Positions 3,218 to 22,243 of a stretch of DNA of 64,000 nt are shown here, in pieces. Position numbers and translations under genes: made by a program. Source of the DNA: Thermanaeromonas toyohensis ToBE (GTDB taxonomy: Bacteria > Bacillota > DSM-521 > Neomoorellales > Neomoorellaceae); assembly GCF_900176005.1 (NCBI RefSeq), contig NZ_LT838272.1:2003587-2067586 (forward strand), given 5' to 3'. Each line of letters opens with the position of its first letter. Position 1 is the stretch's first letter. The notes below the pieces were generated by a model that was not told where the DNA came from, did not search any database, and was given only the letters and a program-made list of their open reading frames with translations.

Positions 3218-3295
3218 TGGCAGGGGAAGCGGGATTTGAACCCGCAGCAGACCGGGATTTGGAGTCCCGCGCTCTCCCACTTGAACTATTCCCCT
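3218..3295 (-). tRNA. tRNA-Trp (CCA), prophage-encoded
   Basis: A complete cloverleaf. The acceptor pairs AGGGGAA with TTCCCCT, the discriminator is G73, and the 3' CCA is encoded in the DNA. The anticodon stem CGGGA/TCCCG closes the loop CTCCAAA (anticodon CCA, Trp). The T-arm is GCGGG-TTCAAAT-CCCGC. It sits between the sigma-like regulator and terS, inside the phage late region. All arms pair without mismatch, so it is probably functional. Confidence 0.92.
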
Positions 3296-6802: not shown

Positions 6803-7768
6803 CTAGCCCCTCTCCTCACAGCCTTTTCGGACCTTTAATAGCCCCTCCGCCGCCCGGTCCAGCCTGGCCTTCTGCTCCGACGTGAACTTCTCCAGCCACC
6901 TGGAGGGTATAGCATCAAATCCCCAATAAACTCCCGCTAGGCCACCGGCAATGGCCCCGATGGTGTCCGCATCTCCACCAAGGTTTACGGCCCTGACCAC
7001 CGCATCCTCAAAGCCCTCAGCCTCTATAAACGCCCATATTGCGCAGCGAAAACTGTCCACCGTATATCCCGTTGGCTTAAGGTTGCTACCGTCTCTATTG
7101 ATAGGCGCATCTATGATCTCGCTCAAACTTCCCTGGTAAACTTCCTTTGTCAACTCTCTTGCAGCTTTAGCAGCTTCAGCTAAGGCAATATACTTGTCCA
7201 AGGCCCCGTCTAGAATGTTCCGCACCGCCAGGGAATAAACTGCGCAGGTCAACCCAGCCCTGATATCCCAATGGGTCATCCTGGCTATAATGATGGCCCA
7301 CCGGTAAACGTTACGGGGCTCCGTGTAGGCTATCCCCACCGGTAACGTCCTCATCAGTGCCCCATTACCGGCGCTCATACCACCCAATTCCCGGTGAGCC
7401 CGTTCGGCCGCTATGTGCCACTGGTTCAAATTATCTCTGTCCAAAATACGAAAGACTGTACTGACTGTGTTCCCTATATCCGGCGGATTAGTAGCCCTCC
7501 ACCGCAGGAAGGCCTGTCCGATATGTGGGACCGGGTCCTCTGGATCGGCTATAATTCCCTCGGCCACGGCCAGGGTCATTTCGGTATCGTCTGTCCATTC
7601 GCCGGGGCGGAGGTTAAGCCACCCGCCACCCACGATGTCCCGCAAAACCCCGTAATACCGCCGGATTTCATCCCGGTTTATAAACTCTACCGTGGCACCC
7701 AGGGCGTCCCCGACTGCCACGCCGTAGAGGCCTCCTCTAACCCTATCTTCCAGACTAAGTAGATTCAC
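6803..7768 (-). CDS. ADP-ribosylglycohydrolase family protein
   Basis: 321 aa, a full-length DraG/ARH-fold enzyme. It carries the paired metal-binding motifs: GVAVGDALGA near residue 15, WTDDTEMTLA around 58-67, and LGGDADTIGAIAGGLAG near 265. These enzymes remove ADP-ribose from proteins, nucleic acids or small molecules. It overlaps the helicase loader gene by 14 bp, so it belongs to the phage early operon. A counter-defence role against ADP-ribosylating host systems is a reasonable inference, not shown. Confidence 0.9.
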   Translation of the reverse strand: MNLLSLEDRVRGGLYGVAVGDALGATVEFINRDEIRRYYGVLRDIVGGGWLNLRPGEWTDDTEMTLAVAEGIIADPEDPVPHIGQAFLRWRATNPPDIGNTVSTVFRILDRDNLNQWHIAAERAHRELGGMSAGNGALMRTLPVGIAYTEPRNVYRWAIIIARMTHWDIRAGLTCAVYSLAVRNILDGALDKYIALAEAAKAARELTKEVYQGSLSEIIDAPINRDGSNLKPTGYTVDSFRCAIWAFIEAEGFEDAVVRAVNLGGDADTIGAIAGGLAGVYWGFDAIPSRWLEKFTSEQKARLDRAAEGLLKVRKGCEERG

Positions 7769-10239: not shown

Positions 10240-10938
10240 TTAAGCAATAAACACCATCTTGCCCGTTAGAGCCTGGATTTCCCGTTTAAAGCGCTCTGCG
10301 TCCGCATTGTTGTCGCTCATGTGCAAAAGGTATATTGACTCAACTTTGCTCAGGTCGTTAGCCAGAAGGAAGTTTTTCGCTGTTTCTAGGCTCATATGGG
10401 TTTTTAACAGCCTCTTTTTTTGCTCTACCGATACAGTTCCCGCTGATATTTGCTCATTTAAAATATCCAGGCTGTAGTTAACCTCTATTAGCACATGAGT
10501 TAAACCCCTAAACCTGTACTTGCAATAGGCGGTATCGCTAATGTAGACCGCCTTAACCCTGCTTTTGTGGGCTAGCAGAAAGTTAAGGGGTTCGGCGGCG
10601 TCATGCACCGCATCGAAGGGCTTCACGGTCCATTCTCCTATTGTCAATTGCTCAAGGGCCCGGATAATGTGTACTCTATGCCCGCTAACTCCTAAAGCTC
10701 GGGCCGTGCCTTCGCTCATGTAGCAGTCCACGCCCATCTTAAGGAGGTCTTTAACGGCCCGGGAGTGGTCCTGGTGCTCATGGCTGACCAAACACCCTAC
10801 CAGTTCGTTAAGGCGAAATCCACACAACCGCTGTATTTCTCTTGCGGGTATTCCCGCCTCCAGGAGGAGGGGGGAGCCACCGGCGATAAGCCGGTAGCAG
10901 TTCCCCTTTGAGCCGGACCCGAATATCTGGACTTCCAT
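10240..10938 (-). CDS. MBL-fold hydrolase, YycJ/WalJ-like, possible exonuclease
   Basis: 232 aa from the ATG at 10938, placed two bases after the RecT stop (TAATATG); the frame is open 49 codons upstream but that part overlaps recT. The N-terminal FGSGSKGNCY and the metal motif SHEHQDHSR (HxHxDH) mark the metallo-beta-lactamase fold, and a later VYISDTAY and YLLHMSD supply further ligands. The closest known pattern is YycJ/WalJ, reported as a 5'-3' exonuclease. Adjacent recT suggests it provides resected ends for annealing; this is inference. Confidence 0.82.
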   Translation of the reverse strand: MEVQIFGSGSKGNCYRLIAGGSPLLLEAGIPAREIQRLCGFRLNELVGCLVSHEHQDHSRAVKDLLKMGVDCYMSEGTARALGVSGHRVHIIRALEQLTIGEWTVKPFDAVHDAAEPLNFLLAHKSRVKAVYISDTAYCKYRFRGLTHVLIEVNYSLDILNEQISAGTVSVEQKKRLLKTHMSLETAKNFLLANDLSKVESIYLLHMSDNNADAERFKREIQALTGKMVFIA

Positions 10939-10939
10939 A

Positions 10940-11902
10940 TTAGAACCCCGGATCATCCCCGAAAAATACCTGCTGCCCTTCTTGGGGTTCACGCCTTTGT
11001 GAATTGGTCGTTTGCGGTTTGCCGTTGCCGGGCTTTTCGGCTTCCTCGGGTACGTAATTTTCCTCGGGTTCCTCGATTGGTTCAATATCGATTACCTGCT
11101 GGTTTGCGTTCTCAGCTATTTCCTGTTCAGCTTCTACCTCCGCCGCAATTTCCTCCGACCGCCTTACTGCCCGGAGAAGCTGGGCGTCATTGGAGGAGTT
11201 AATAATTGGCTTACAGACCTTATTGATAACTGTTCGGATACACATCTCTGCGGTAAACTTATCATGGGTAGTACCAGGCTTGATATTGCCCTTCTCATCA
11301 ACCGGATGGATCGGGCTCTGCCTCCATGCCTGCTTAATCTGATCGATGGTCATAATTTCGGTAGCTATAACCTCGTCGTTGTGATTGATTACCATGGCAT
11401 AGGCCGCCTTGATCTTTTTGGGGTTTATGTTTTCCAACTTCTGCTCGTGGTTGGTCACTATCTTTTTACCCCGGTCTAGCTTGTAGGTAAATACGTCCCC
11501 TTCATAAACCACTTCAGCCACAATATCCGCTATGTCCGGGTTCACCATCTTAGCTACGGCCATGGTGCCGAAATAGCTCCTCTGGCATACAAGCTGATTT
11601 CCATAGGCAATAAAGTAGCATTGCTGTTTAGCTGGATTAAGCCCTTGAATGACCATGTCCATGAGGGCGTTCACTATTGATGCCTTCGTGCAGGTCTGCA
11701 GTACCGGCCTTTTTTCCCGGTCAACGGTATTCTGGAGTATCAGCCAGGCGCTCTTAAGGGCGTTTACCGGGGAGTAGTCGGGCGGCAGGTTGATTTCTCC
11801 GCGCCGCAGATACTCCTGTACCTTTGCAGCCACTAAATCAACGGTATCTTTTTTCAAAAGGGCCAACGAGCCTTTTGTTTGTTGTTCCGCCGTCATCGCC
11901 AT
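10940..11902 (-). CDS. recT: RecT single-strand annealing protein
   Basis: 320 aa. Typical RecT features: INLPPDYSPVNALKSAWLILQ, the conserved ALMDMVIQGLNPAKQQCYFIAYGNQL core, SYFGTMAVAK, and TAEMCIRTVINKVCKPIINSS. The acidic, Pro-rich C-terminal tail (about residues 265-320) is variable in the family. It anneals complementary strands in phage recombination. It sits 1 bp after the SbcC-like ATPase gene and directly before the MBL-fold gene, so the three form one cassette. Confidence 0.93.
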   Translation of the reverse strand: MAMTAEQQTKGSLALLKKDTVDLVAAKVQEYLRRGEINLPPDYSPVNALKSAWLILQNTVDREKRPVLQTCTKASIVNALMDMVIQGLNPAKQQCYFIAYGNQLVCQRSYFGTMAVAKMVNPDIADIVAEVVYEGDVFTYKLDRGKKIVTNHEQKLENINPKKIKAAYAMVINHNDEVIATEIMTIDQIKQAWRQSPIHPVDEKGNIKPGTTHDKFTAEMCIRTVINKVCKPIINSSNDAQLLRAVRRSEEIAAEVEAEQEIAENANQQVIDIEPIEEPEENYVPEEAEKPGNGKPQTTNSQRREPQEGQQVFFGDDPGF

Positions 11903-11903
11903 A

Positions 11904-13877
11904 TTAGATGGCCTCCTTTAGTAAAGTGTCTTCCTCGATTTCTACCCGTAGGGTCTTATCCCGCGGGCTCACCACCAGGCTGATTACCTGGCTATTGACG
12001 GGGATTAAGTTGGTCACACTCTCCCGCTCGTCTATGAAAATCGGGGCGTAGAACCCGTAATGCTCTGCTAGCGTGTTGATTATGTCCAGGCCGATATTTA
12101 TTTTTGCGGCCCCGTTCAGGTCGGGATAAGGGACCCCTTTATACAGGGTCACGCAGGTTTCAGCTATGCCGCCGTTAACCTGCTGCTCGAAGAGCTTAAA
12201 CCGGGCATAGCGGAATTTGGAATTTATCCGCTCCTCCAATAAATTGACTTTGGTCCGGACAAACTGCTCGCACAGGTACAACTCCTTTTCCAGCCGCTCG
12301 TATTCGGCTGCCAGAGCCTTCTCCTGGGCCTTAAGCTCTTCTATCCTTGCCAGGCCGGCCTTGCGGGCTTGGATACGGGCCAGGGTTTGGCTCAGGTCCT
12401 TGATCTGACCGTTGATGGCGTCAATTTCCCGGCGGACCTTTTCTATAGCTTCCCGGTTATCCGCCTGGAGCCGTTCGATTTCGGCCTCCAGTTCAGCCTT
12501 GCGCTCCATAGCGGCTTTTATTGCGTTGTCCAGGGCTATATCAGTATCGTTATTGGCCGCTTCCAGTTCGGCTTTAAGACGGTCAACTTCCGCTTGCCTT
12601 TTTACGAGCTCGGCCTCCATTTCTGCTAGTTTGGCGGAAAGCCAGTTATATTCGCCCATTATCTCCTCGTATTCGGCCCTGCGGCGCTTGCCAAGATTGC
12701 TAATCTCTTCAAGGTCCCGAGCCTTGGCTAGGTTAAACTCGGCCAAGGCCTTTTCCCTAGCCTCAGTTAGCTTTTCTTGCGGCAACGGTTGGCCGCAGGT
12801 GGGGCAGATGGTATCTTGCTCAAAGACAAACTCCTGCTTATTACGTTCATGCCATTGTATCCGCAAGCTATTTATCTCCCGTTCTACGGCCTGTGCATCG
12901 TCCAGAAGCTGGACCATGCGGCGTTTAGCTACTGCAATTTCTGTGGTCAGAACATCCACTTGGCCTTTTGCTTCGATTAATTTCCGTCGCAGTTCTCCCG
13001 TTCGCTCGGCCTGCCTAGCAGCCTGCTCGTTTCGCAGACGCTGAATTTCGGCCTCGCATTCCCGCAAGGCCACCTTGGCCTCGGCTATGGCTCCGCCGGA
13101 AGATACCTGGGCTAAGGCAGCCTGTTTTTCCGCTAGCACGTCATACAATGCCTTAATTTGACTCTGCAATTCGGCCTCGTCAATGTCGGGAACGTCAGGT
13201 AGTGCCCTGGTTGCCTCATCAATACGTGTGGGGATCTCTCTTAGTTCCTGATTGATTTTTGACATGCGGGCTTGAACAATCTTGCGATGATCATCTATGG
13301 ATCTGTTGCCCAAAATGGAGGGAAGCTCAGAAAGGGACGGATCGGAAACAATAACCTCCTGGTCGGTTATGTCTCCGCAGATTTCCATTAGAATGCGGCG
13401 CCTTTCTTGCCAGGATAGGTTACGGTTAAAATGATAGGGGTCGGTAAGCAACCTAAATACAGTCTCATCCGCTAAGGCCGCAACCCGGGCCTGGTACTCT
13501 TTCTCCTTTACTGGTACACCGTCCACGTAATAGAGCGTTTCGTGTCCGGAAAAGATTGTAGTAGCGCTCCCCCGCTTCTTTGTCCATTTCTCGCGGAACA
13601 CTCGCCGCAAGGTGAGTTTGCGGCCGTCGAGGTCAAATACCCCTTCAACTTCATGCTCCAGACCAGGGATGACCTGGCCGTTTTGGTCAAGCGTCTTTAT
13701 TGCGAAATCGGCTCTGTTTTGGCTGTCCCGACCGAACAGTAACCATAAGTAAGCGTCCACTAAGCTAGTCTTGCCAGCCTCATTAGCACCGTACACGGTA
13801 CAATTTGCTCCGTTAGGTTCCAAGGTGAACCTGCGGATGCCCTTGAAGTTTTTAAGGGTTAGCCTCAGTAACTTCAT
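11904..13877 (-). CDS. SbcC/Rad50-like ATPase of the phage recombination cassette
   Basis: 657 aa. Residues about 1-40 hold LKNFKGIRRFTLEP and Walker A GANEAGKTS. Long coiled coils flank a zinc hook (CPTCGQPL near residue 360). The C-terminal half has a shortened ATPase lobe with PIFIDERES as Walker B. Rad50/SbcC proteins use ATP to control a nuclease partner; no SbcD-like gene is adjacent. It is shorter than host SbcC (about 1000 aa), as in other phage versions. It likely works with RecT and the MBL-fold protein. Confidence 0.85.
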   Translation of the reverse strand: MKLLRLTLKNFKGIRRFTLEPNGANCTVYGANEAGKTSLVDAYLWLLFGRDSQNRADFAIKTLDQNGQVIPGLEHEVEGVFDLDGRKLTLRRVFREKWTKKRGSATTIFSGHETLYYVDGVPVKEKEYQARVAALADETVFRLLTDPYHFNRNLSWQERRRILMEICGDITDQEVIVSDPSLSELPSILGNRSIDDHRKIVQARMSKINQELREIPTRIDEATRALPDVPDIDEAELQSQIKALYDVLAEKQAALAQVSSGGAIAEAKVALRECEAEIQRLRNEQAARQAERTGELRRKLIEAKGQVDVLTTEIAVAKRRMVQLLDDAQAVEREINSLRIQWHERNKQEFVFEQDTICPTCGQPLPQEKLTEAREKALAEFNLAKARDLEEISNLGKRRRAEYEEIMGEYNWLSAKLAEMEAELVKRQAEVDRLKAELEAANNDTDIALDNAIKAAMERKAELEAEIERLQADNREAIEKVRREIDAINGQIKDLSQTLARIQARKAGLARIEELKAQEKALAAEYERLEKELYLCEQFVRTKVNLLEERINSKFRYARFKLFEQQVNGGIAETCVTLYKGVPYPDLNGAAKINIGLDIINTLAEHYGFYAPIFIDERESVTNLIPVNSQVISLVVSPRDKTLRVEIEEDTLLKEAI

Positions 13878-17039: not shown

Positions 17040-17384
17040 TTGGAAAATCCTGCGAATACCCCGAAGAGCAGTCCTCAACTAGAGAGCAGATTAATTGCTA
17101 CAGAACCGTCAGCGTTACAGATCCAGTTCGCTGACCTTGTCCAAGCTAATGTTAACCCAGAAAGAGTTGTCCTAACATTTATTCAAAACTTACCTGGCAA
17201 TGCTCCACCGGAAGCGATAAATACTGGCAATGTTATCGATGGTCGTGTTATCGCTCAGATTGCCGTTAGCTGGCCTCATTTGGTCAGGATCAGGGACTTA
17301 CTTACTCGTATTATTGAACACTATCGCCAGGAAGTAATACGCTCAGTTAATTCTGCTTTAGGGGAGGCCGAAGAAAGTGAGTGA
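17040..17384 (+). CDS. DUF3467 family protein
   Basis: 114 aa, TTG start after a GGAAGGAGGG box. A middle segment (LIQFADLVQANVNPERVVLTFIQ-like) and the C-terminal helix (HLVRIRDLLTRIIEHYRQEV) fit the DUF3467 family, small proteins resembling the fold of archaeal/phage regulators. It overlaps the next gene by 8 bp. Function unknown; it lies inside the lysogeny block. Confidence 0.6.
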   Translation: MENPANTPKSSPQLESRLIATEPSALQIQFADLVQANVNPERVVLTFIQNLPGNAPPEAINTGNVIDGRVIAQIAVSWPHLVRIRDLLTRIIEHYRQEVIRSVNSALGEAEESE

Positions 17385-17844
17385 AGAGTTTATTACTTCC
17401 TCGGGTATTACCAGGAGAACTCTTTTTGATATATTAGGAGTAGAAAGACGGCAACAGACACAGATGCCCCAAATAGTACCTGGCACGATAATCGTCAATG
17501 TTAATATTGAAAACTCTACTATTAATGTTCCTTCCCTCGAGCCTTCAACTAAAAAAGGAGTGAGGGCCAAAATGGGAGGCGGTGTTTTTACCTCCTTTAT
17601 TGATGCGGCGATGAAAGAAGCCATAGTAGAAAAATTGTCCGATGGTACATTTTACGCCGAAATACCCTCCTGTCCTGGAGTTTGGGCAGATGGGAAAACC
17701 AAGAAAGAATGTTTAGAAACCCTCCAGGAAGTTCTTGAAGAATGGTTATTGTTCAAGCTCCGGGAGGGCGATAGGGATTTTCCTGTATTAGGTGGCGTGG
17801 ATTTGAATAGGGAATGGACCGAAGACCGCTCCTGGGCAGGTTGA
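17377..17844 (+). CDS. hicB: HicB-type antitoxin with an N-terminal extension
   Basis: 155 aa. The C-terminal half carries the HicB core (KLSDGTFYAEIPSCPGVWADG, then ECLETLQEVLEEWLLFKL). The first ~75 residues are an added segment of unknown function, with a Thr/Asn-rich beta-like stretch (IVNVNIENSTINVP). GTG start overlapping the DUF3467 gene. It would neutralise and, with its extension, may bind DNA for autoregulation. The order antitoxin-then-toxin is one of the two known for this family. Confidence 0.8.
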   Translation: MSEEFITSSGITRRTLFDILGVERRQQTQMPQIVPGTIIVNVNIENSTINVPSLEPSTKKGVRAKMGGGVFTSFIDAAMKEAIVEKLSDGTFYAEIPSCPGVWADGKTKKECLETLQEVLEEWLLFKLREGDRDFPVLGGVDLNREWTEDRSWAG

Positions 17845-17850
17845 TATACG

Positions 17851-18060
17851 ATGAAGCCTCTCAAAAGAAGAGAATTAATTGCGAAATTGAAGCACTTTGG
17901 CTTTGAAGGTCCCTTTCCCGGTGGTAAGCATTCATATATGAAACGAGGAAGTCTAAAAATAAGGATACCCAATGAACACGGCACAGATATTAGTGAAGAT
18001 TTACTGCAAAGGATTTTAAAGCAGGCCGGCATAAGCAAGGAAGAATGGGACAGAACATAG
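17851..18060 (+). CDS. hicA: HicA-type toxin
   Basis: 69 aa, a full-length HicA: MKPLKRRELIAKLKHFGF, the catalytic GGKHSYM (His in the double-stranded RNA-binding fold) and a C-terminal LLQRILKQAGISKEE helix. HicA toxins cleave mRNA. It starts 6 bp after hicB. The pair is likely an addiction or anti-phage module maintained with the prophage. Confidence 0.88.
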   Translation: MKPLKRRELIAKLKHFGFEGPFPGGKHSYMKRGSLKIRIPNEHGTDISEDLLQRILKQAGISKEEWDRT

Positions 18061-21052: not shown

Positions 21053-21079
21053 AAAGCATCTCAACTACAAGAGGTGCCT

Positions 21080-22243
21080 ATGATGCCCACCGGCCATCTC
21101 GAAAAGCGCTACAAAAGTTCCTGGACCATAGTTATAGAACTCGACCGTGACCCAGTAACCGGCAAACGCAAGCGTATCACCAAAAGCGTTAAAGGTACCA
21201 AAAAAGAAGCCGAAAAAGAAATGGTCCGGATGCTAAACGAGCTTGAACGGGGTACATACGTGGAGCCTTCTGGAATGACTGTAGGTGAGTATCTGCTTCA
21301 CTGGCTGGAGGCCTATTGCAAGCCCAACTTGGCACCCAAGACGCTGCAAAGCTACAGTTACATCATCCACCAGCATCTAATTCCGGCTTTGGGGCACATA
21401 AAACTTGACAAGCTACAGCCCCTCCATTTGCAAGAATACTACAGTAAAGCCCTTCAGTCAGGCCGTAAGGACGGTAAAGGCGGCCTCTCTCTCCGCTCCG
21501 TCCAGTACCATCACCGCATTTTACATGAGGCCTTGGGCCATGCGCTCAAGTGGCAGCTAGTACATAGGAATGTGGCCGAAGCCGTAGAAGCCCCACGTTA
21601 TAAACGGCCTGACGTGAAAGCGTTATCCCCTGAAGAAGTAAATAAGCTCTTGGCCAAGGCTAAGGAGATTAATCATCCTGATTATGCCCTGCTAGTCACG
21701 GCAGTTTACACGGGGATGCGCCAGGGCGAGCTTCTGGGGCTACGCTGGCAGGACATCGACATGACTGCTGGCGTGGCCTATGTGAGGCAAATACTCCAGA
21801 AGCTTCCTGGCCAGCCGGTAATGTTCAAGGAACCCAAAACGCAGGCCGGGAAGCGACAAGTAGTGTTATCCCCTGCCGTAATAGACATTTTGAAGGCTGC
21901 AAAAAAGCAGCAGGCTGAAAATCGACTACGCTTAGGGCAGGCATATCAGGACTATGGGCTTGTATTCTGCCGCGAAAATGGCTTGCCTCTTGATCCTTTT
22001 ACTGTTACTCACCGCTTCAAGAAGCTGGCTAAGCTGGCTGGCTTCCCCGAGTTACGTTTCCACGATCTGCGGCATACTCATGCTACCCTATTGCTGGCCC
22101 AGGGGGTACATCCAAAGGTGGTCCAGGAACGCCTCGGGCACCGGAGCATTACTCTGACGCTCGATACTTATAGCCACGTTTTACCCACGTTGCAAAAAGA
22201 GGCAGCTGCTAAAGTCGAAGAGGCCTTAAAGCACAGTAAATAG
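21080..22243 (+). CDS. int: Tyrosine integrase
   Basis: About 387 aa. An AP2-like N-terminal arm domain (YKSSWTIVIELDRDPVTGKR) and a SAM-like core-binding domain (TVGEYLLHWLEAYC) precede the catalytic domain. The catalytic residues are present: Arg in YTGMRQGELLGLRW, the HDLRHTHATLLL box, GHRS and the nucleophile Tyr in LDTYSHVL. It lies 146 bp from the tRNA-Lys fragment, as expected for an integrase that uses a tRNA 3' end as its site. Confidence 0.95.
   Translation: MMPTGHLEKRYKSSWTIVIELDRDPVTGKRKRITKSVKGTKKEAEKEMVRMLNELERGTYVEPSGMTVGEYLLHWLEAYCKPNLAPKTLQSYSYIIHQHLIPALGHIKLDKLQPLHLQEYYSKALQSGRKDGKGGLSLRSVQYHHRILHEALGHALKWQLVHRNVAEAVEAPRYKRPDVKALSPEEVNKLLAKAKEINHPDYALLVTAVYTGMRQGELLGLRWQDIDMTAGVAYVRQILQKLPGQPVMFKEPKTQAGKRQVVLSPAVIDILKAAKKQQAENRLRLGQAYQDYGLVFCRENGLPLDPFTVTHRFKKLAKLAGFPELRFHDLRHTHATLLLAQGVHPKVVQERLGHRSITLTLDTYSHVLPTLQKEAAAKVEEALKHSK

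What the first reader, a model, noticed from the sequence alone, without database searches (positions are those of the whole stretch)
10240..13877. Prophage recombination cassette: SbcC-like ATPase, RecT and MBL-fold protein
RecT normally pairs with a RecE/YqaJ-type exonuclease. None is present. An MBL-fold protein of the YycJ/WalJ exonuclease type follows recT at 1-bp spacing, and a Rad50-like ATPase precedes it. The MBL protein may supply the 5'-3' resection, making a Red-like system with a different nuclease.
Basis: inference. Interest (0 to 1): 0.6.

Follow-up and report, generated by a model that had tools for sequence, protein, structure and literature searches.

The report
Phage recombination cassette with swapped nuclease
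A prophage carries a DNA-recombination kit in which the usual end-chewing enzyme appears to be replaced by a Rad50-like ATPase plus a metallo-beta-lactamase-fold enzyme, and the annealing protein carries a short tail peptide found only when those two partners are present, which points to a physical machine rather than the antibiotic-resistance or immune-evasion gene that such enzymes have been called in print.

Summary
The three genes are real and lie on the minus strand: Rad50/SbcC-like ATPase (13877-11904), recT (11902-10940) and MBL-fold hydrolase (ATG at 10938, to 10240), with 1-bp gaps. No YqaJ, DUF3799 or over-cut-off PD-(D/E)XK match lies in the prophage region. Of 321 loci usable after dropping duplicates and short flanks, 220 carry ATPase and MBL together and no exonuclease, 99 carry an exonuclease (DUF3799 or YqaJ) and neither of the two, and none mixes them. 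Order is ATPase-annealase-MBL in 219 of 220. The pair sits with annealing proteins of three PHROG families and has swapped with exonucleases at least three times on a RecT tree. The MBL is closest to chromosomal WalJ/YycJ, reported as a 5'-3' exonuclease. New here: a tail motif (E[IV]xENANxE[VI]IDI) in annealases paired with ATPase+MBL, absent from exonuclease-paired ones (0 of 53, 0 of 57). A test on fresh loci confirmed its specificity, but a divergent branch lacks it. recT next to 'lactamase B2' without an exonuclease was already in print (2021), read there as resistance-gene spread. Nuclease activity, polarity and docking are inferred.

The parts
11904..13877 (-). Rad50/SbcC-like ATPase, 657 aa, first gene of the cassette
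   Evidence: PHROG 77 E 3.4e-91; AF2 model mean pLDDT 87.4 with long coiled-coil arms; PDB matches Mre11-Rad50, MukB, Smc, JetABC and SbcCD heads
13767..13790 (-). Walker A (GANEAGKT, residues 30-37)
   Evidence: N32 and K36 invariant in 62 homologues; the name Walker A is recalled
12795..12806 (-). CxxC zinc-hook-like turn (C358, C361) at the tip of the coiled coil
   Evidence: both Cys invariant in 62 homologues; lies between helices 262-347 and 367-443 of the model
12021..12044 (-). Walker B region (residues 612-619, PIFIDERE)
   Evidence: D616 invariant, P612 and E619 at 90% or more
10940..11902 (-). recT, single-strand annealing protein, 320 aa
   Evidence: PF03837 E 1.7e-35; PHROG 148 E 1.2e-62
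11081..11134 (-). C-terminal linear motif of RecT, residues 257-274 (EAEQEIAENANQQVIDIE), proposed docking peptide
10943..10960 (-). acidic tip of RecT ending in F (GDDPGF)
   Evidence: final F in 114/145 RecTa+MBL, 5/5 RecTb+MBL and 22/23 SSAPc+MBL against 23/53 and 9/57 of exonuclease-paired RecT
10240..10938 (-). WalJ/YycJ-like MBL-fold metallohydrolase, 232 aa, proposed resection nuclease
   Evidence: PHROG 392; AF2 mean pLDDT 97.1, pTM 0.93; groups with chromosomal WalJ
10765..10782 (-). HxHxDH metal-binding motif (residues 53-58) of the MBL
   Evidence: H53, H55, D57, H58 and also H112, D135, H181, H206 invariant in 63 homologues

Best explanation
This is a two-part recombination module of the Red/RecET kind in which the PD-(D/E)XK exonuclease has been replaced by two proteins that travel together: a Rad50-like, zinc-hook ATPase and a WalJ-type MBL-fold metallohydrolase. 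Most likely the ATPase binds and opens DNA ends and feeds the MBL enzyme, which resects the 5' strand; RecT coats and anneals the 3' strand. RecT is probably tied to the pair by the ENAN motif just behind its annealing core, as the Redbeta C-terminal domain is tied to lambda exonuclease. Shown: the obligate three-gene order, mutual exclusion with exonucleases, repeated partner swapping on the RecT tree, intact metal ligands, WalJ kinship, and a partner-specific tail motif shared by several annealase families. Inferred: nuclease activity, polarity, which of the two partners holds the motif, and complex formation.
For: Mutual exclusion: 220 / 99 / 0 mixed of 321 usable loci, order ATPase-SSAP-MBL in 219 of 220. 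Whole records of MBL+ATPase phages: YqaJ over cut-off 0 of 30 and 0 of 50, DUF3799 0 of 45 against 5 of 5 controls, PDDEXK_1 over cut-off 0 of 45, SbcD-fold Metallophos 0 of 45. Named phages of Aeribacillus, Bacillus, Brochothrix, Staphylococcus, Paenibacillus, Cellulophaga, Porphyromonas and Stenotrophomonas share the order. Partner swaps: 5 changes on the RecT tree, at least 3 forced by well-supported branches; Stenotrophomonas BUCT704 RecT (ATPase+MBL) is 47% identical to Listeria A118 RecT (YqaJ). Motif: model trained only on RecTa, above the best of 5,820 shuffled tails in 138/145 RecTa+MBL, 5/5 RecTb+MBL, 23/23 PHROG-2185+MBL, 1/1 PHROG-561+MBL, 0/53 RecTa+DUF3799, 0/57 RecTb+YqaJ. MBL: seven metal-ligand positions invariant in 63; WalJ 100-116 bits, other MBLs up to 31 bits.
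Against: No activity was measured. The MBL profile matches WalJ well, but the only biochemical claim for WalJ (5'-3' dsDNA exonuclease, Yang 2013) was seen only as cited in PMC4801191. On new loci only 32 of 61 RecTb+MBL annealases passed the motif threshold; over all sets 207 of 242 pass, 14 are borderline and 21 show no trace, so the motif is not essential everywhere. A differential-conservation test could not say whether the MBL or the ATPase binds it.
Confidence: 0.68

Rival explanations
1. The ATPase and MBL form an SbcCD-like or T4 gp46/47-like endonuclease that opens hairpins, blocked ends or branched intermediates; bulk 5' resection is done by host AddAB/RecJ. The module is recombinational, but the MBL is not the processive exonuclease.
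For: The ATPase has a Rad50 head, coiled coil and CxxC hook and no SbcD-fold partner in 45 of 45 viral records, so the MBL sits in the nuclease slot of an MR complex. PDDEXK_1 matches with frames of 1,154 and 1,223 aa, AddB/AddA-like by size, are in this genome.
Against: The pair excludes exactly the 5'-3' exonuclease families, which a helper endonuclease would not need to do. WalJ is cited as a 5'-3' exonuclease.
Confidence: 0.2
2. The MBL is an anti-Pycsar (Apyc1-like) cyclic-nucleotide phosphodiesterase, as the Porphyromonas phage homologue is annotated.
For: Annotation in PP754928 and PMC10367356; the fold search returns YhfI and Apyc1 among the best (TMq 0.75 and 0.62); the profile finds Apyc1 at 33.5 bits.
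Against: Apyc1 scores no better than RNase J (35.8 bits), while WalJ scores 100-116 bits with the phage profile. An anti-defence gene has no reason to be locked behind an ATPase and an annealase in 219 of 220 loci or to exclude exonucleases. The Porphyromonas copy itself sits behind an SbcC-like gene and recT.
Confidence: 0.07
3. The MBL is an antibiotic-resistance beta-lactamase spread by phages.
For: Proposed in PMC8093625 and for a Halomonas phage in PMC10305713.
Against: Class B core model 27.2 bits against a cut-off of 100; WalJ kinship; fixed place in a recombination cassette.
Confidence: 0.02
4. The tail motif docks a third protein (for instance SSB or the helicase loader), and ATPase and MBL have separate tasks.
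For: The motif's target was not identified; the tip ends in F like an SSB tail (resemblance recalled).
Against: Exonuclease-paired RecTs in the same kind of phage lack the motif (0/53, 0/57), although they need SSB too.
Confidence: 0.15

Closest known systems
lambda Red / RecET / A118 gp47-gp48 (annealase + exonuclease 'SynExo')
   Same: Adjacent annealing protein plus nuclease gene in the phage early region; an annealase C-terminus that contacts the nuclease is known for Redbeta (PMC8303780, passages).
   Different: No PD-(D/E)XK exonuclease; two proteins (ATPase+MBL) take its place, and the annealase tail carries a different element.
recT-'lactamase B2' neighbourhood of Bacillales prophages (PMC8093625)
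   Same: The same gene pair, the same lack of a nearby exonuclease.
   Different: That paper reads it as spread of a resistance gene, does not make the ATPase part of it, limits it to Bacillales and reports no tail motif (passages read only).
WalJ/YycJ
   Same: Closest cellular MBL family by profile and tree; shared metal-ligand pattern.
   Different: Phage-borne, in an ATPase-annealase operon rather than walHI-walJ-htrA; about 230 aa.
SbcCD / Mre11-Rad50
   Same: Rad50-like ATPase with coiled coil and CxxC hook next to a metallonuclease candidate.
   Different: Nuclease candidate is MBL-fold, not a calcineurin-like SbcD (0 of 45 viral records); shorter ATPase (657 aa).
Apyc1 / YhfI
   Same: MBL fold, HxHxDH.
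   Different: Low identity (15-20%) and recombination context.

Membership tests
RecT/Redbeta annealing proteins | RecT domain PF03837 over cut-off | tested here: met
   122.8 bits, cut-off 24
SynExo two-component recombinase | paired PD-(D/E)XK exonuclease (YqaJ, DUF3799, PDDEXK_1) | tested here: not met
   none in the prophage region
SynExo two-component recombinase | physical annealase-nuclease complex | not testable with these tools
WalJ/YycJ | sequence closer to WalJ than to other MBL families | tested here: met
   WalJ 100-116 bits against up to 31 bits for others; tree
WalJ/YycJ | complete metal-ligand set | tested here: met
   H53 H55 D57 H58 H112 D135 H206 invariant in 63
WalJ/YycJ | wal operon position | tested here: not met
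   phage cassette; the wal-type neighbourhood is seen only for L441-L445
WalJ/YycJ | 5'-3' dsDNA exonuclease activity | not testable with these tools
   needs an assay
SbcC/Rad50 | split ABC head, coiled coil, CxxC hook | tested here: met
SbcCD/Mre11-Rad50 complex | calcineurin-like SbcD/Mre11 partner | tested here: not met
   PF00149 in 0 of 45 viral records; none of the 7 matches in the window's genome lies in the prophage
Apyc1 | Apyc1-specific loop and dimer residues E74/Y112 | not tested
   named in PMC9117128; residue mapping not done
class B beta-lactamase | NCBIfam class B core over cut-off | tested here: not met
   27.2 bits, cut-off 100

The most novel reading that the evidence does not exclude
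A widespread phage end-processing complex in which a Rad50-type ATPase drives an MBL-fold nuclease instead of Mre11/SbcD, and which different annealing-protein families plug into through one portable peptide (ENAN motif). The motif and the ATPase-MBL pair move together between annealase families, so a single docking code decides which nuclease a phage annealase uses.
Probability: 0.45. Interest if true: 0.8.

Novelty: new variant of a known kind. Interest (0 to 1): 0.62.

Why it matters
It gives a function to a large set of phage MBL genes now filed as antibiotic-resistance, auxiliary-metabolic or anti-Pycsar genes, and to 'SbcC-like' phage ATPases that have no SbcD. It explains how a class of RecT phages can do without an exonuclease, and it predicts a transplantable docking peptide, which would be directly useful for dsDNA recombineering in Gram-positive hosts, where information on annealases and their exonuclease partners is short (PMC8093625, passages).

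Tried and rejected
Rejected: beta-lactamase and Apyc1 readings (see rivals). PADLOC gave only weak SMC-like ATPase matches (LmuB and others) and nothing for RecT or the MBL. phmmer of the single MBL against the PDB found nothing. The fold search cannot separate WalJ from YhfI, Apyc1 or RNase Z, since no WalJ/YycJ-named structure is in the 50 rows shown. A search for a chromosomal WalJ in the window's own genome found none among 10 Lactamase_B_2 matches, so WalJ was taken from five Bacillales genomes. The genome-contig scan meant to fetch WalJ returned only a second prophage MBL branch; it served as an independent check, with RecT near it in 11 of 12 loci and an ATPase match in 10 of 12 (L435 is cut by the contig end, and in L432 no ATPase was matched). 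Differential conservation between motif-positive (207) and motif-free (21) loci did not point to the MBL or the ATPase. Alignment A8 (a read-through of RecT and MBL with RecT-only and MBL-only rows) was misaligned and dropped.

Caveats on counts: the annealase and partner scans each return the best matches of a capped list, so they measure association, not abundance. Classes were set by in-session HMMs within 5 kb of the annealase gene. In one search, of 500 loci, 126 duplicate proteins, 51 short flanks and 2 without an annealase were dropped. The two 'neither' loci, L463 and L480, show a neighbouring frame that looks RecE/DUF3799-like by eye (untested). The Fisher value printed there (7.8e-82) ignores relatedness. 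The motif PSSM was trained on all MBL-paired groups and is partly circular; others (leave-group-out; new loci) are the fair tests. In one search, 14 of 106 loci were set aside because their contigs had been seen before, and duplicate proteins were not counted.
Full report
What is there. The window holds a prophage early region, transcribed leftwards, with an integrase at 21074-22243(+) and terminase and portal genes at the left edge. The cassette comprises a 657-aa ATPase, recT and a 232-aa MBL protein with 1-bp gaps, followed by a replication initiation protein, a DnaC-like loader and RusA. The families are PHROG 77 (SbcC-like), PF03837/PHROG 148 and PHROG 392. No exonuclease of the YqaJ, DUF3799 or PDDEXK_1 type lies in the prophage region; the genome's only YqaJ match is about 73 kb to the left in another prophage, beside a different protein of PHROG 10048.

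How common. tblastn finds the MBL in 199, the ATPase in 171 and the RecT in 142 of 50,697 phage records. The order ATPase-RecT-MBL is annotated in phages of Aeribacillus, Porphyromonas, Bacillus, Brochothrix, Cellulophaga, Paenibacillus, Stenotrophomonas and Staphylococcus. Streptococcus EJ-1, Lactobacillus LF1 and Listeria A118 have recT with an exonuclease and no ATPase or MBL nearby.

Survey. Seven viral-contig scans were annotated with in-session HMMs. First pass: 75 of 80 loci of the first RecT scan have both ATPase and MBL, and the other 5 have RecT at a contig end. Of the second scan, 16 of 80 have both, 63 have DUF3799, and 1 has RecT at a contig end. Of the A118-type scan, 79 of 80 have YqaJ. 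Pfam confirmed DUF3799 in all nine exonuclease frames sent. Final count: of 500 loci, 321 remained after dropping 126 duplicates, 51 short flanks and 2 without an annealase. MBL+ATPase without exonuclease 220; exonuclease without either 99; neither 2; mixed 0. The order is ATPase-SSAP-MBL on one strand in 219 of 220 (exception L050). Whole-record searches agree: YqaJ over cut-off in 0 of 30 and 0 of 50 records (one sub-cut-off hit of 16 bits), DUF3799 in 0 of 45 against 5 of 5 controls, PDDEXK_1 over cut-off in 0 of 45 (one of 14.7 bits below it; only 2 of the 5 controls ring for this family), and the SbcD-fold Metallophos in 0 of 45.

Swapping. On a RecT tree without the tail, partner type changes 5 times, at least 3 of them forced by well-supported branches (quick method, some long branches). 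The clearest case: the BUCT704 RecT (ATPase+MBL) is 47% identical to A118 gp48 (YqaJ). The same ATPase-MBL pair also serves annealases of PHROG 2185 and PHROG 561. Repeated replacement of one by the other is what functional equivalence predicts.

The tail motif. Annealases paired with ATPase+MBL carry, behind the annealing core and a median of 53 to 65 residues from the end, the pattern E-V-x-x-E-[IV]-x-E-N-A-N-x-E-[VI]-[IL]-D-[IVF]. In the window it is residues 257-274. A model trained on RecTa alone scored above the best of 5,820 shuffled tails in 138/145 RecTa+MBL, 5/5 RecTb+MBL, 23/23 PHROG-2185+MBL and 1/1 PHROG-561+MBL, and in 0/53 RecTa+DUF3799 and 0/57 RecTb+YqaJ. Trained on nine PHROG-2185 windows only, it found 130/145 and 5/5, with 0/53 and 0/57. 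In a scan of all other frames of these loci only annealase frames scored above 10 (all). On fresh loci with the model fixed, 12/12 PHROG-2185+MBL, 32/61 RecTb+MBL, 0/5 YqaJ, 0/2 DUF3799 and 0/3 unclassified carried it. Over all MBL+ATPase sets 207 of 242 pass, 14 are borderline and 21 show nothing. The motif is thus highly specific for the partner type but not universal: a divergent RecTb branch lacks it. Exonuclease-paired RecTs more often carry another short tail element, [KR]D[VI]T[PED]: 25/53 and 41/57 against 3/145, 0/5 and 0/23. Redbeta's C-terminal domain binds lambda exonuclease and SSB (PMC8303780, passages), and partner binding by the RecT tail has been suggested for the Listeria RecT (PMC9772228, passages), so a docking role is the natural reading.

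The enzymes. The MBL model is confident (mean pLDDT 97.1). All metal-ligand positions are invariant in 63 homologues. Chromosomal WalJ was identified in five Bacillales genomes by its neighbours, which look like walH, walI and an HtrA-type protease (these names rest on recall and on sequence appearance, not on a family search). The phage profile scores WalJ at 100-116 bits and other MBLs at no more than 31; a tree groups two phage branches and WalJ apart from seven of eight other MBLs (weakly supported there, and the eighth is a very long branch). PMC4801191 cites WalJ as a 5'-3' dsDNA exonuclease in B. anthracis mismatch repair (passage), and PMC9836290 lists it so in B. subtilis (passage). 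The ATPase is Rad50-like: head, coiled coil and an invariant CxxC turn. With no SbcD-fold protein in the records, the MBL sits where the MR nuclease would.

What was known. PMC8093625 (passages) reports recT-lactamase B2 in Bacillales prophages that lack a recognisable exonuclease and reads it as resistance-gene spread. PMC10305713 (passages) calls such a gene an antibiotic-resistance AMG, and PMC10367356 (passages) calls the Porphyromonas copy anti-Pycsar. My searches (listings) found no paper proposing the ATPase-MBL pair as the replacement nuclease, nor the tail motif; subscription journals are mostly outside that library.

Verdict. Activity, polarity and docking remain to be shown.

Noticed in passing
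window 3218-3295 (-): A tRNA-Trp (anticodon CCA) lies inside the prophage between sigma-factor-like and terminase genes.
   Followed up: no
window 6803-7768 (-): ADP-ribosylglycohydrolase (PHROG 6572, E 1.1e-61) between the helicase loader and RusA in the prophage early region; possibly counter-defence or regulation.
   Followed up: no
L093:8915-9772 (-) next to L093:9785-10723 (-), window's own genome: A second prophage pairs a YqaJ-type nuclease with a 285-aa protein of PHROG 10048 (unknown function, no Pfam match): a candidate uncharacterised annealing-protein family.
   Followed up: partly
L424-L434 and L006: A second phage MBL branch (Paenibacillus larvae type) sits with a shorter ATPase (about 509 aa) and several RecT subtypes that share a different C-terminal domain ending near D-[DE]-L.
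   Followed up: partly
RecT tails of exonuclease-paired loci (e.g. L333, L098-L142): A short [KR]D[VI]T[PED] element in 41/57 YqaJ-paired and 25/53 DUF3799-paired RecT tails, rare in MBL-paired ones: a possible docking element for exonucleases.
   Followed up: partly
window 17377-18060 (+): Two small genes next to the repressor look like a HicB/HicA toxin-antitoxin pair (by eye, recalled; PHROG search of the first gave nothing).
   Followed up: no
window's own genome: No WalJ/YycJ orthologue stood out among 10 Lactamase_B_2 matches; the prophage MBL scored best, next best 35.5 bits.
   Followed up: partly
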